Shown: in pieces, positions 43,834 to 47,017 of the stretch
Layout: every line of letters starts with the position of its first letter
Position numbering within the stretch: position 1 is the first letter of the stretch
Assembly (NCBI RefSeq): GCF_000496835.1
Contig: NZ_KI543236.1
Location: 369,866 to 433,865, forward strand
Length of the DNA: 64,000 nt
Origin: Thalassobacillus devorans MSP14
GTDB lineage: Bacteria > Bacillota > Bacilli > Bacillales > Halobacillaceae
Direction of reading: 5' to 3'
Position numbers and translations under genes: made by a program
Notes under the pieces: generated by a model
The model's input: the letters and a program-made list of their open reading frames with translations, nothing else
Databases searched by the model: none
What the model was told of the DNA's origin: nothing

Positions 43834-43876
43834 AAATGCCTGACTCTGGTGATGGAACACGCAGGGTCAGGCATTT
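43834..43876. repeat. Dispersed palindromic repeat, copy 3 (terminator-like)
   Basis: AAATGCCTGAC / GTCAGGCATTT arms with a shorter core. It lies between the microprotein gene and the convergent FNR-like gene and overlaps the stop of the latter. Confidence 0.7.
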
Positions 43877-44591
43877 ACAGGTTTTCCAGACGGTTTTTAT
43901 CAAGCAGGCGGAAGCGTTTCGGATCAAGTTTATGAATGAGTCCTTTTGCTTCGAGGTCGGCGAGCCTGCGGCTGATCGTTTCCGGTGTGGTACCGAGAAA
44001 GGAGGCAAGGTCTTTTTTGTTCATCGGCAGGCGGATCGTATCACTGCCTGATGCTTCCGCCAGCTCTGCCAAATACAGGGAAAGGCGCTTTCCGACGCTT
44101 TCCGTAGCTAGGCTGGTGGTCTGTTTTTCCGATTGTTCGAGGCGGGCGGAATAGGTCTTCAGTATTTTTAAGACGATGGAAGGATAGCGCATTAAAAAAT
44201 CCTGCAGGTTGTTTCGGCGGATTGTACAAATCGTGACAGGCTCATTTGCTTCGGCATACGACTCATGAAGCGATTCACTGAATAGCGCATATTCCCCGGT
44301 GAAATCCCCAGGCTGCAGGAGACGTACCACCTGTTCTTTACCAGAATCGGAAATCCGGTAAATACGTACCGAGCCCGTATTGACGATATATAGCGAGTCA
44401 GAAGGATCACCGGCCCGGTAAATGATATCTCCCTTTTGATAGGTGAGCGACCGGATGGCTTCGGTGACCGCATCCATCTGGTCATTATCAAGGTGGTTGA
44501 AAATCGGTACCCGGGCTACGCACGTATGGCCGGAAGCCTGATGACAATGCTGGCAAATGGGCCGGTCACCGGAATTTTTCATCATACTCAT
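43875..44591 (-). CDS. Crp/Fnr-family regulator, FNR-like oxygen sensor
   Basis: A 238-residue regulator. Cys13, Cys16 and Cys24 lie in an N-terminal cluster (CQHCHQASGHTC) and Cys122 is in the sensor domain (VTICTIRR). This matches the E. coli FNR arrangement (three N-terminal Cys plus Cys122) of a [4Fe-4S] oxygen sensor, unlike Bacillus Fnr with its C-terminal cluster. A cNMP-like barrel (about 25-150) and winged helix follow. The recognition helix reads TPETISRRLADLEAKG, whose E--SR residues read TTGAT half sites in FNR. A matching box lies 80 bases upstream. The ATG at 44591 follows AAGGAGG; a longer frame to 44639 lacks support. Confidence 0.88.
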   Translation of the reverse strand: MSMMKNSGDRPICQHCHQASGHTCVARVPIFNHLDNDQMDAVTEAIRSLTYQKGDIIYRAGDPSDSLYIVNTGSVRIYRISDSGKEQVVRLLQPGDFTGEYALFSESLHESYAEANEPVTICTIRRNNLQDFLMRYPSIVLKILKTYSARLEQSEKQTTSLATESVGKRLSLYLAELAEASGSDTIRLPMNKKDLASFLGTTPETISRRLADLEAKGLIHKLDPKRFRLLDKNRLENL

Positions 44592-44668
44592 CCACGTATC
44601 CTCCTTCCATTTTCTTTCATTATAGCATGATGGTCGCATGAAATTATGGGCACAGAATTTGTGAAAAC

Positions 44669-44710
44669 TTGATCTGGGTCAAAGAAAAGACGGACTAAGG
44701 CGAGGATAAT
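44669..44710 (+). promoter_or_regulatory. FNR box and class II promoter of the divergent operon
   Basis: TTGATCTGGGTCAA at 44669-44682 matches the FNR/ANR consensus TTGAT-N4-(A/G)TCAA. A -10-like GATAAT lies at 44705-44710. If transcription begins about seven bases beyond it (44717), the box is centred at -41.5, the classical activating position of FNR. No good -35 is needed or seen. Activation of the 44735-46627 operon without oxygen is therefore predicted. Confidence 0.8.
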
Positions 44711-44734
44711 GGAAAACAAAGGAGGAGATGTTTT

Positions 44735-44872
44735 ATGACGAATCAAGCATTGCTTTCTATTGATTTGGATGTGGATCGGATGATCAATGAAGGTCTGGGC
44801 GGGGGATATATTCTGTCTAAAATTGATGAGCGCAGGTTCGATGACTTGGAAGCAGGGGAGGAAAAGATATGA
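44735..44872 (+). CDS. Small protein, 45 residues, first gene of the FNR-box operon
   Basis: ATG 44735 follows AAAGGAGGAG (44718-44727). The product opens MTNQALLSIDLDVDRMINEG and ends KIDERRFDDLEAGEEKI. It has a Gly-rich turn (GLGGGY) and an acidic end, with no membrane segment. The next gene's ATG overlaps its stop (ATGA), so translation is coupled. No family is recognised. Confidence 0.75.
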   Translation: MTNQALLSIDLDVDRMINEGLGGGYILSKIDERRFDDLEAGEEKI

Positions 44873-45180
44873 TGTATCTCCCGGAAGTGTATGCCTGGGT
44901 CCTCTATGCTGGTCTATTAGCTTTGGCGGCGGCGGTCGTTCTCCGAAGCGTGAAAATGTTCTCGGTGGAAATAGTGCTGCTGGCGGGCATAATGGTCTTA
45001 CTGGATGGTCAGCTATTGATATTCGCGGGAATGATCCAGTTGGTAATCAGTGCGATGCTGCTCCTCGGGATGCTGCGCGCAATCGATCGCAATTACCGGC
45101 TCGTGTTGGAAAAAACGCATCGAATTCCAAGAAATCTTACGTATCGAGGCGCTGATGGAGCCCGGGCTTCTTTTTTATAA
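44869..45180 (+). CDS. Small integral membrane protein, 103 residues
   Basis: Three hydrophobic segments (about 8-26, 32-50 and 52-70) are followed by a basic cytoplasmic tail (RAIDRNYRLVLEKTHRIPRNL). ATG 44869 or the directly following ATG 44872 may be used. It is coupled to the 45-residue gene upstream and sits 12 bases before the next membrane-protein gene. No family is recognised with confidence. The context points to anaerobic membrane or respiratory function. Confidence 0.75.
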   Translation: MMYLPEVYAWVLYAGLLALAAAVVLRSVKMFSVEIVLLAGIMVLLDGQLLIFAGMIQLVISAMLLLGMLRAIDRNYRLVLEKTHRIPRNLTYRGADGARASFL

Positions 45181-45192
45181 GGAGGGAGGGAA

Positions 45193-45678
45193 ATGCGCGA
45201 ACTGGTTCTATTCATCCATATTCTGCTTGGCGTCATGTGGGCGGGGGGCATTCTTTTTATCGGCTGGGGCGTGTTTCCCGCGGCAGCAAAAATGCCTGTG
45301 GAAAGACAGCGTACTTTCCTCATTGGTCTGATGAAGCACACGCATTACTTGTTTACGATGGCGGGAACAGGAGTGGTCCTCACCGGTATCATACTCGGAA
45401 CCGTATTCGGCCCCCTCCACAGCTGGGATACCATTCGCAGCACCACGTACGGACATCTTTGGCTGACCGCACTCTCGATCGGAACATTCGCCTTGTTCTG
45501 GGGAGTTTTTGTGGGTTACAGGGAAATGATGCTCGTATTCACGGACGATTATTTATGGAAAGAAGCAGCAGCTGGCAGCCGGAAAGCCCTTTCGCGGGAT
45601 CTTTTCCGGCTTGCCGCTTTAGAGTCGGTGGAAGTGCTCAGTTTGGTGGCGCTTATTTTTCTTATGGTGAAATGGTAA
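45193..45678 (+). CDS. CopD/DUF2269-like membrane protein
   Basis: A 161-residue membrane protein with four hydrophobic segments. The opening ELVLFIHILLGVMWAGGILFIGWGVFP and the later LMKHTHYLFTMAGTGVVLTGIILG place His residues (His9, His49, His51) within or at the edge of helices, as in CopD-like and b-type cytochrome-like proteins that can hold haem. AAGGAGGGAGGG precedes ATG 45193. A haem or metal role is inference. Confidence 0.65.
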   Translation: MRELVLFIHILLGVMWAGGILFIGWGVFPAAAKMPVERQRTFLIGLMKHTHYLFTMAGTGVVLTGIILGTVFGPLHSWDTIRSTTYGHLWLTALSIGTFALFWGVFVGYREMMLVFTDDYLWKEAAAGSRKALSRDLFRLAALESVEVLSLVALIFLMVKW

Positions 45679-45691
45679 GGGGGCGAAAAAC

Positions 45692-46627
45692 GTGCGGGCA
45701 TACAAAACAGCACCACAGCTGGAGAAGGACATTCCTTATACCTGCAAGCTGTCCTGGCTGCAGCTGATGCGGCCGTTGACATGGAGTGGAACCATCAGTC
45801 CCATTCTGGCAGGGAGTCTTTTGGCCGGGAGCGAAAATGCATTACACTACGAAAAGACCGGGTTACTGGTTATTGCCGCATTGCTGATCCAAAGCGGTGC
45901 CAATCTGTTCAATGACTATTTCGACTTCCGGCATGGCCAGGATAACGAACGCTGGCACAAAGTACAGGGATCTTCCACAAACAGGTACCCCTGTCATCAT
46001 CAGGTTCCGGCTGCCGGTGCGATTCTGATGGCTGCTGCTGTGCTCCTTGGGGGAAGGCTTGCATTCCTCACCGGGTGGTGGGTGGCGGTTGTAGGAATCC
46101 TCGGTATCCTTGCGGGAATTTCCTATTCTGCCGGCAGGCGCTCGCTCGCATCACGCGGGCTTGGTGAATGGACTGCCGGGCTATTTCTGGGAATGGTGAC
46201 AACGCTTCTCGGGTACAGCGTCCAAACCGGAACGATCACTGTGGAGGCTGTGCTGACTGGAATCGTTTTTGCATTATTAATCAGTTCGATGGTGCTTACC
46301 AATAACATCCGGGACATCAAAAAAGACGAAGGCTTCCGGCGTACCATCGCAATGAAGCTTGGCCACCGGAATGCGATCCGTCTTTTGAAAGGGTTGTTGT
46401 TTAGTGCATATCTGCTGGTAATCATACTTGTCACTTTTTCCTTTGTTCCAGTTGGAGTGCTGGTTGTGCTCCTCGCTTTTCCGCTTGCTATCCGGATTCC
46501 TCGTTCTTTTGGAGCTCAGCAGGAGGAAGCACAGCTGGCGATGAAGCGGGCTGCCTTGCATCACTGGGCATTCGGAATGCTTTTCATACTGGGAATGGTG
46601 ATTGGATCACCCCAGGTCCTCCAGTAA
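45692..46627 (+). CDS. UbiA-family prenyltransferase (MenA-like)
   Basis: A 311-residue membrane prenyltransferase with eight to nine hydrophobic segments. The first Asp-rich motif is NLFNDYFDFRHGQDNERW (N-x3-D-x2-D pattern) and the second region is TNNIRDIKKDEGFRRTIAMKLG (D-x3-D). These bind Mg-prenyl diphosphate. MenA makes demethylmenaquinone from 1,4-dihydroxy-2-naphthoate, which fits a gene under oxygen-responsive control. It is not beside other men genes, so it may be a second, specialised copy. The start is GTG 45692 after AAGGGGG. Its last codons run into the 27-bp repeat at 46608. Confidence 0.85.
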   Translation: MRAYKTAPQLEKDIPYTCKLSWLQLMRPLTWSGTISPILAGSLLAGSENALHYEKTGLLVIAALLIQSGANLFNDYFDFRHGQDNERWHKVQGSSTNRYPCHHQVPAAGAILMAAAVLLGGRLAFLTGWWVAVVGILGILAGISYSAGRRSLASRGLGEWTAGLFLGMVTTLLGYSVQTGTITVEAVLTGIVFALLISSMVLTNNIRDIKKDEGFRRTIAMKLGHRNAIRLLKGLLFSAYLLVIILVTFSFVPVGVLVVLLAFPLAIRIPRSFGAQQEEAQLAMKRAALHHWAFGMLFILGMVIGSPQVLQ

Positions 46628-46661: not shown

Positions 46662-47017
46662 ATGAATAATAATCTGATGGAACAAATGAAGGAATTGGAG
46701 AAGAGTCATTTGAATCTGGAAGTACGGAAATCTTCAGAAGAGCTGGATAACATTCTGGCGGATGACTTTTTTGAAATTGGCAGCTAATGATTTACAAGGA
46801 AGAATGTATTACGAATGGGGTTGACCCCGATGAAATGGAGCTATATGATTTTGAGCTTCATCCACTGGGAGCAGATGTCGTGTTGACCACTTATTTCATC
46901 CACAACAAAACTAAAAATCGCAATACGCTTCGGAGCTCGATTTGGAAACACCGGGAAGGGAGATGGCAGTTATATTTTCATCAGGGGACCATTACAAACA
47001 GGCCAATTCCTAATTAA
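46662..47017 (+). pseudogene. DUF4440/NTF2-like protein broken by a frameshift
   Basis: ATG 46662 after GGTGGAGA encodes 41 residues ending LADDFFEIGS, stopped by TAA at 46785. The next frame, from ATG 46787, reads IYKEECITNGVDPDEMELYDFELHPLG and continues to 47017 with SSIWKHREGRWQLYFHQGT. Together they make the 117-residue NTF2-like DUF4440 pattern (LL..DFFEIGSSG.IY.KE...LRSS.W....WQ..FHQGT). One base lost near 46784 would account for the break. The overlapping TAATG could allow coupled synthesis of two halves, but a recent pseudogene or sequence error is more likely. Confidence 0.75.

What the first reader, a model, noticed from the sequence alone, without database searches (positions are those of the whole stretch)
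43875..46627. FNR-type regulator with a class II FNR box driving a new four-gene membrane operon
The regulator has the E. coli-like Cys13/16/24/122 set and an ETISR recognition helix. TTGATCTGGGTCAA lies upstream at -41.5 relative to the predicted start of an operon encoding two unrecognised small proteins, a CopD-like protein with His-bearing helices and a UbiA/MenA-like prenyltransferase. This could be an undescribed anaerobic quinone or haem module.
Basis: partly seen in the sequence, partly recalled or inferred. Interest (0 to 1): 0.75.

Follow-up and report, generated by a model that had tools for sequence, protein, structure and literature searches.

The report
FNR-switched membrane prenyltransferase gene pair
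In a bacterium of the salt-loving genus Thalassobacillus, a regulator of the oxygen-sensor type sits beside a predicted switch for four small membrane-related genes, and the core of that set, a spare quinone-type prenyltransferase with a membrane partner, stands behind the same kind of switch in about twenty related genomes although its job is unknown.

Summary
Between a Crp/Fnr regulator (43875-44591, -) and four genes (44735-46627, +) lies TTGATCTGGGTCAA (44669-44682), followed after exactly 22 nt by GATAAT: a class II layout (-41.5). The genus is Thalassobacillus; T. devorans keeps box, spacing and -10. The widely conserved unit is the last two genes, a CopD-like four-helix protein and a UbiA-family prenyltransferase. 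In 22 such loci from Bacilli, UbiA follows directly in 21. A Crp/Fnr-type box plus exactly 22 nt plus a -10 lies upstream in 20 of 22 (21 with one mismatch), against 0.007 per set in shuffles and 1 of 266 other genes (pattern partly post hoc). The prenyltransferases form their own clade beside MenA (100/100) and keep the Asp motifs; the own genome has MenA and CtaB besides. The four-gene operon was seen only in Thalassobacillus, and a CX2C pair is in 4 of 14 close orthologues. Oxygen response, Fe-S cluster and product are untested. Best reading: an FNR-controlled second prenyltransferase module for low-oxygen respiration; the papers searched did not describe it.

The parts
43875..44591 (-). 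FNR/FLP-type regulator gene (238 aa from MSMMKN); Cys13, 16, 24, 122; helix GTTPETISR
   Evidence: the longest-ORF rule starts it at 44639
44669..44682 (.). FNR box TTGATCTGGGTCAA, predicted class II site (-41.5) for the operon
44705..44710 (+). predicted -10 element GATAAT, 22 nt after the box
44735..44872 (+). small ORF, 45 aa (S45), no family; relative in T. devorans and a weak one (21 residues, E 0.002) ahead of an OsmC-globin gene in G290
44869..45180 (+). 103-aa small hydrophobic protein (M103), number of membrane helices not settled; relatives divergent from the pair in G1132, G1075, G1039
45193..45678 (+). CopD-like membrane protein, four long helices in the predicted model; H9, M47, H51, E147, M158 the same in 21 of 21 aligned
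45692..46627 (+). UbiA-family prenyltransferase (GTG start), own clade beside MenA; Asp motifs kept

Best explanation
The locus is an FNR/FLP-regulated accessory membrane module. Step 1 (strong by sequence, not by experiment): the regulator, presumably active when oxygen is scarce, binds the dyad centred at -41.5 and recruits RNA polymerase as a class II activator. Step 2 (strong comparative evidence): the core of the operon is a fixed pair, a CopD-like 4-helix protein plus a second MenA-like prenyltransferase, kept behind the same promoter design across Bacilli. Step 3 (inferred from intact motifs): the prenyltransferase is active and moves a polyprenyl chain from its diphosphate to an aromatic acceptor, as MenA does. 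Step 4 (speculative): the acceptor differs from or supplements DHNA, giving a quinone or quinone-like lipid suited to low-oxygen or anaerobic electron transport; the CopD-like partner, with constant His, Met and Glu, binds haem, metal or the product and acts with it. The 103-aa protein (and perhaps the 45-aa one) are accessory. My probabilities: steps 1-2 about 0.9, step 3 about 0.8, step 4 (quinone-type product) about 0.4.
For: Box and spacing: KTGAYN4RTCAM, then exactly 22 nt, then a -10 (4/6 or better, A2 and T6) in 20 of 22 pair loci, 21 with one mismatch, G319 without; mean 0.007 and maximum 1 per set in 300 shuffles; 1 of 266 other genes of the same loci, a flavodoxin-like gene (by eye) divergent from a pair. 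With TTGAYN4RTCAA and one mismatch: 12 of 22, 0.03 per set in 200 shuffles, 3 of 268 other genes, and 12 of 15 boxes with the -10 at 22 nt. UbiA directly follows CopD-like in 21 of 22 loci; gaps measured in 18 are 5-196 nt, one of them an ORF overlap. The regulator is next to the pair's operon in the window, T. devorans and G1132, and one gene away in G1086. UbiA clade 100/100 with 20 rows, apart from MenA and CtaB; N74, D75, D78, N204, N205, R207, D208, K211, D212 in 18 of 18 aligned. The own genome has CtaB and, beside menF/menD-like ORFs (by eye), MenA as well. dN/dS against T. devorans 0.08-0.26 for fnr, M103, CopD-like, UbiA; not computable for S45. In G1132 the pair precedes heme-copper-oxidase-like genes, a TIGR04053 radical SAM gene and an Fe-S repair (RIC) gene; G1075 looks the same by eye.
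Against: No expression, cluster, enzyme or quinone data exist here. The 22 loci are not independent (16 numbered genera plus Virgibacillus; G1038 and G1017 share the same promoter letters). Only 13 of 22 pair genomes have a close orthologue of this regulator (E 1e-80 or better: 9 of the 12 strict-box genomes, 4 of the other 10); G051, G319 and G1060 reach 1e-60 to 1e-46, five more only 1e-38 to 1e-34, G081 none at 1e-30, so other regulators must act on some promoters. V. indicus has CopD-like without UbiA beside it. Oxidase-like genes adjoin in 2 of 22 loci. The relaxed design in the own genome is near background: 16 and 23 matches against 16 and 6. CopD-like is rare: 3 of 61 relatives, 14 strong hits of 397 in the order, absent from 3 of 4 other genomes of the genus searched; so it is not needed for anaerobic life in general.
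Confidence: 0.5

Rival explanations
1. Haem-modification module: the UbiA protein prenylates a haem and the 4-helix protein acts like a half-size CtaA on it, supplying a special haem for a low-oxygen heme-copper oxidase.
For: In G1132 (and G1075 by eye) the pair precedes heme-copper-oxidase-like genes, an SCO-like ORF by eye, and a radical SAM gene whose second-best model is AhbD haem synthase. CopD-like has two His constant in 21 of 21 aligned.
Against: The prenyltransferase lies in the MenA branch, far from CtaB; its CtaB score is 33 bits against a cut-off of 210. A CtaB is already present. From the helix limits of the model the two His sit at different depths (inference), which argues against one bis-His haem. 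Oxidase-like genes adjoin in only 2 of 22 loci.
Confidence: 0.17
2. Metal-handling module: the regulator belongs to a metal/redox-stress circuit (P1B ATPase, HMA protein, ferritin-like protein) and the CopD-like protein moves or binds copper or iron, with UbiA as a passenger.
For: Close orthologues of the regulator stand near a P-type ATPase in G009, G015, G056 and G049, with ferritin-like genes in G056 and G049; each of these ATPase genes follows a box with 22 nt to a -10, counted by eye. T. devorans has an HMA gene and a heavy-metal ATPase behind such a box next to fnr. CopD-like is a remote relative of CopD (6 of 11 members at E up to 0.1, best 4.5e-6).
Against: UbiA is the most constant neighbour (21 of 22) and keeps its Asp motifs; of the pair stretches read I saw the ATPase only in T. 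devorans; the window protein does not meet the Pfam CopD cut-off.
Confidence: 0.15
3. Other prenylated lipid: the enzyme prenylates a non-quinone acceptor (membrane or signalling lipid) needed at low oxygen.
For: The clade lacks the SVGIGG-IVR-like stretch that follows the first Asp motif in most MenA rows and has W88 (18 of 18) and another loop there.
Against: Nothing seen in the neighbourhoods points to a lipid pathway.
Confidence: 0.15
4. The FNR box is a chance match and the promoter is constitutive.
For: TTGA/TCAA dyads are common here: 43 sites in the genome against 8 for the reversed pattern, most inside genes; the relaxed full design is near background.
Against: Position, spacing and -10 recur in 20 of 22 loci against 0.007 by shuffling.
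Confidence: 0.03

Closest known systems
FNR of Escherichia coli type; solved 'FNR type regulator' (5cvr and others)
   Same: cNMP and Crp HTH domains; ET-SR recognition helix; Cys at the 122 position; TTGAT-type dyad at class II position; E about 3e-21 to the solved FNR
   Different: CX2CX7C instead of CX2CX5C (E. coli spacing recalled); NCBIfam Fnr subfamily 95 of 228 bits; the number of N-terminal Cys varies from one to three among orthologues
FLP / FNR-like proteins of lactic acid bacteria and streptococci (L. casei FLP, L. lactis FlpA, S. suis FlpS)
   Same: Gram-positive, often two Cys instead of four (passages in PMC5039431); here Cys24 and Cys122 equivalents in 14 of 14
   Different: not compared by sequence here; the window protein has four Cys
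Fnr regulon of Bacillus subtilis (box TGTGANNNNNNTCACA, table row in PMC8151001)
   Same: GTGA-type boxes upstream of the pair in several other genomes fit this consensus
   Different: the window regulator has N-terminal Cys; that B. subtilis Fnr has a C-terminal cluster is recalled. Two other own regulators (L056, L059) end in Cys-rich tails
MenA, DHNA polyprenyltransferase, and UBIAD1 (8djk)
   Same: UbiA family, both Asp motifs, nearest branch; UBIAD1 E 5e-17
   Different: separate clade 100/100; below the MenA cut-offs; other loop after the first Asp motif
CopD (copper resistance protein D) domain, as in CopC-CopD-YtkA proteins
   Same: weak profile match, helical membrane domain
   Different: below Pfam cut-off; stand-alone, paired with UbiA, no CopC part

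Membership tests
E. coli-type FNR | cNMP-like sensor and Crp-type HTH | tested here: met
   Pfam 88.6 and 64.1 bits, above cut-offs
E. coli-type FNR | four Cys (three N-terminal plus Cys122) and ET-SR helix | tested here: met
   present in the window protein, but CX2CX7C; a CX2C pair in 4 of 14 close orthologues
E. coli-type FNR | NCBIfam Fnr subfamily score | tested here: not met
   95.3 bits, cut-off 228; so it works like an FNR but is not filed as that subfamily
E. coli-type FNR | oxygen-labile [4Fe-4S] cluster | not testable with these tools
   needs purified protein
class II FNR-dependent promoter | dyad centred at -41.5, fixed distance to a -10 | tested here: met
   22 nt from box to -10 in 20 of 22 loci; transcription start not mapped
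MenA (DHNA polyprenyltransferase) | UbiA domain with both Asp motifs | tested here: met
MenA (DHNA polyprenyltransferase) | score over an NCBIfam equivalog cut-off | tested here: not met
   best 200.5 of 277; TIGR00751 101.3 of 102.15
MenA (DHNA polyprenyltransferase) | groups with the MenA rows of Bacilli | tested here: not met
   own clade 100/100; not filed as MenA
CtaB / haem O synthase | score and clade | tested here: not met
   33 of 210 bits; other side of the tree
CopD (PF05425) | gathering score | tested here: not met
   18.9 of 32.1 bits; fold comparison could not be run
FLP (lactic acid bacteria) | two-Cys redox switch | not testable with these tools
   only Cys positions seen

The most novel reading that the evidence does not exclude
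Bacilli carry an undescribed low-oxygen cofactor pathway: an FNR-induced second prenyltransferase and a dedicated four-helix His/Met/Glu membrane partner make a new prenylated quinone (or prenylated haem) used only when oxygen is scarce.
Probability: 0.3. Interest if true: 0.8.

Novelty: new variant of a known kind. Interest (0 to 1): 0.58.

Why it matters
Menaquinone is described as the sole quinone of most Gram-positive bacteria (abstract of PMC6257245, seen in the listing). A scattered but conserved, FNR-type-regulated second MenA-like enzyme with a fixed membrane partner would mean that some Bacilli change a respiratory cofactor with oxygen. The promoter rule found here (Crp/Fnr box, exactly 22 nt, -10) gives a way to look for regulon members near these genes, and the question becomes directly testable: quinone and haem profiles of strains with and without two adjacent genes.

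Tried and rejected
Considered and rejected: chance box (controls); the pair's UbiA as the housekeeping MenA (own MenA elsewhere, separate clade); CtaB; CopC-CopD copper proteins (the 11 weak hits of the order scan lie in frames of 542-575 aa; the one scanned, L052, is CopC-CopD-YtkA); presence outside the class (15 of 398 in the phylum scan: the own genome strong, the other 14 at 43 bits or less, not followed up).

Left out before counting: G075 (L050: CopD-like 34% identical and without H51, UbiA outside the clade, reverse gene order), G380 (partial match, 3.6e-13) and G348 (CopC-CopD) of the nine class hits. Checked afterwards, G075 and G380 lack the promoter; G319 has a one-mismatch box without a -10 at 22 nt. 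In one search the CopD-like alignment holds 21 of 22 (G1017 left out) and the UbiA alignment 18 of 21 (G081, G319, G1017 left out); of 30 regulator rows printed, 14 were counted (best match of each genome at 1e-60 or better) and 16 dropped. In one search rows that one search flagged as long or wrongly picked, and several CtaB-like rows, were left out. In one search the window and T. devorans promoters were measured from the first operon gene, the others from the CopD-like start, whose position in G1086 I chose by the conserved region.

Led nowhere: nine paper searches (five of them on the pair's families) listed no paper that I could take for a description of the pair; I judged by titles and abstract starts. 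PDB profile search of CopD-like: one hit at E 0.9. Hydropathy script merged segments and does not settle helix numbers. Notes and hold two errors (fnr start near 44600; Cys13/16 only in Thalassobacillus), corrected.
Full report
WHERE IT IS. The window lies in a 3.94-Mb genome. Its genus is Thalassobacillus: genome G004 is of the same genus, and its contig C4 has the length and the match of the T. devorans record NZ_FXEH01000006.1. Gene order: regulator on the minus strand, 43875-44591; then on the plus strand 44735-44872 (S45), 44869-45180 (M103), 45193-45678 (CopD-like) and 45692-46627 (UbiA). The plus-strand genes overlap or lie within 13 nt of each other, as an operon would.

THE SWITCH. 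TTGATCTGGGTCAA (44669-44682) is followed by 22 nt and GATAAT. In T. devorans the same box is followed by 22 nt, largely different, and GATACT. All 43 TTGAYNNNNRTCAA sites of the own genome (8 in the reversed control) were placed on ORF maps: 36 inside ORFs, 7 flagged outside, one of these (L020) at a start codon. Among the 7, only the window site has a 5/6 -10 at 22 nt; L080 has one at 21 nt. A scan of the whole design with one mismatch gave 16 forward and 23 reverse matches against 16 and 6 in the control, near background; I followed one intergenic candidate, before an Mrp/ApbC-like gene on C5, and did not place the others.

THE REGULATOR ELSEWHERE. A search of 61 relatives at E 1e-30 found it in 7. 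Besides the window and T. devorans I read the surroundings of the other five: G009 and G015 (P-type ATPase and a 99-aa protein without family), G056 and G049 (P-type ATPase and ferritin-like protein), G051 (none of these). In the first four the ATPase gene starts 65-73 nt after the first base of a box of the same design; the 22 nt were counted by eye. The ATPase and ferritin families were scanned in one to two members each, the rest judged by eye. T. devorans has such a box before an HMA gene and a heavy-metal ATPase next to fnr. Flavodoxin-like genes lie next to or near the orthologue in G1086, G290, G1014 and G999 by eye; the one of G290 was confirmed by Pfam. In 14 close orthologues Cys24, Cys122 and ET-SR are constant; a CX2C occurs in 4 (window, T. 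devorans, G1014, G999). So the family straddles E. coli FNR and two-Cys FLP proteins; the passages of PMC5039431 that I saw say that Gram-positive FNR-like proteins often have two Cys and that cluster control is debated.

THE PAIR ELSEWHERE. CopD-like homologues: 3 of 61 relatives; 9 of 398 in the class, 7 of them at about 1e-29 or better; 25 of 397 in the order, 14 of them at 1e-44 or better; 15 of 398 in the phylum, of which only the own genome is strong. One genome-contig scan gave T. devorans and two Virgibacillus. From these I took 22 loci: own, G004, G051, two Virgibacillus, five of the class scan (G297, G081, G290, G394, G319) and twelve of the order scan. UbiA is the next gene in 21; Virgibacillus indicus lacks it there.

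THE PROMOTER TEST. First test, FNR box with one mismatch, 22 nt, and a -10 of at least 4/6: 12 of 22 loci, 0.03 per set in 200 shuffles, 3 of 268 other genes: a spurious ORF on the window's own promoter, the divergent flavodoxin-like gene, and one in L174. The ten other loci were then read; nine have a GTGA...TCA box at the same place, and G319 has none that fits. Second test, with KTGAYN4RTCAM: 20 of 22 without mismatch, 21 with one (G081), G319 missing; mean 0.007 and maximum 1 in 300 shuffles; 1 of 266 other genes; 20 of 24 boxes have a -10 at 22 nt, and no other spacing has more than 3. The second pattern is post hoc, and loci of one genus are not independent. GTGA...TCAC fits the B. subtilis Fnr consensus TGTGANNNNNNTCACA given in a table of PMC8151001 (passages seen). 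A close orthologue of the window regulator (1e-80 or better) is in 13 of 22 genomes, 9 of the 12 with the strict box and 4 of the 10 without, so the pair has probably been handed between Crp/Fnr regulators while the class II position was kept.

THE PROTEINS. UbiA: 18 of 21 aligned; N71, N74, D75, Y76, D78, G82, Q83, W88, N204, N205, R207, D208, K211 and D212 in 18 of 18, D84 in 17. In the tree 20 pair enzymes form one clade (100/100) beside, not within, the MenA clade of Bacilli and far from CtaB (10 rows, one of them a duplicate). UbiA-family genes were counted in 8 of the 22 pair genomes: each has at least three over the cut-off. Of the genus members without the pair G001 and G003 have two and G002 three. 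In the own genome the other two are MenA and CtaB; in G297 and G081 no row fell in the MenA clade, so MenA beside the pair is not a rule. CopD-like: H9, W16, G18, G19, F22, M47, H51, V61, G65, G69, G73, G104, G128, E147 and M158 in 21 of 21 aligned; the left-out G075 lacks H51. Predicted model from four sequences: pLDDT 85.6, four long helices 2-31, 36-70, 85-116, 131-160. M103: four relatives, 24-58% identical to the window protein, with a conserved Y-L--EK tail; divergent from the pair in G1132, G1075 and G1039. S45 has a relative in T. devorans and a weak one in G290, there behind a second class II box and ahead of an OsmC-globin fusion.

SELECTION AND AGE. dN/dS between window and T. devorans is 0.08-0.10 (fnr), 0.12-0.24 (M103), 0.19-0.26 (CopD-like), 0.23 (UbiA); S45 could not be computed. 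dS is about 0.7-2.1, against 0.37-0.55 for MenA of the same two genomes, the only core gene compared. So the genes are under constraint, but the locus is more diverged than that core gene and CopD-like is missing from G001-G003 of the genus: an accessory, perhaps transferred, island.

WHAT IT PROBABLY DOES. Shown by sequence: regulator type, box, fixed spacing, pair conservation, intact motifs, separate clade. Inferred: activation at low oxygen, active prenyl transfer. Speculative: a quinone-type product; haem and metal rivals are kept at 0.17 and 0.15. In G1132 the pair precedes heme-copper-oxidase-like genes (below NCBIfam cut-offs), a TIGR04053 radical SAM gene and an Fe-S repair (RIC) gene, both over cut-off, with molybdenum-cofactor-like genes near by eye; G1075 shows the same oxidase neighbours by eye. 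This respiratory setting fits either the quinone or the haem reading.

NOVELTY. Nine searches of the open library, five on the pair's families, listed no paper that looked like a description of such a pair, judged by titles and abstract starts; subscription papers are mostly missing from that library, so this is weak evidence of absence. I rate it a new variant of a known kind: known regulator type and known enzyme superfamily in an apparently undescribed, conserved regulated module.

Noticed in passing
window 46662-46787 and 46787-47017: A DUF4440-type protein appears broken into two ORFs right after the operon; only the second part matches PF14534. Described only.
   Followed up: no
window 44641-44682 (-): Read on the minus strand, the box has TAATTT 22 nt away, a possible divergent control of fnr itself; not kept in T. 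devorans by eye.
   Followed up: partly
L056 and L059 (own genome): Two further Crp/Fnr regulators end in Cys-rich tails (CENCPIVLC, CDQCGVQNC), like the B. subtilis Fnr type as I recall it.
   Followed up: no
L057 (own genome, C1:250000-253000): A nitric-oxide-reductase-like ORF (by eye), a Crp/Fnr regulator without the N-terminal Cys, a DUF2249-like ORF (by eye) and a COX1-like ORF (below cut-off) stand together.
   Followed up: no
L047 2731-3790 (G290): An OsmC-globin fusion gene behind an S45-like small ORF and its own class II box, divergent from the pair.
   Followed up: partly
L034 (own genome): ctaB follows a pyruvate-carboxylase-like ORF (by eye) with about 500 nt between and no ORF of 150 aa (so no ctaA) in the gap.
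   Followed up: no
L050 (G075): A remote CopD-like/MenA-like pair in reverse order beside a Crp-type regulator, a hemerythrin-domain protein and DUF2249-like ORFs (by eye).
   Followed up: partly
L202 2523 (own genome, C5): TTGATGCAAATCAC, 22 nt, TATACT upstream of an Mrp/ApbC-like gene: a possible second target of the regulator.
   Followed up: partly
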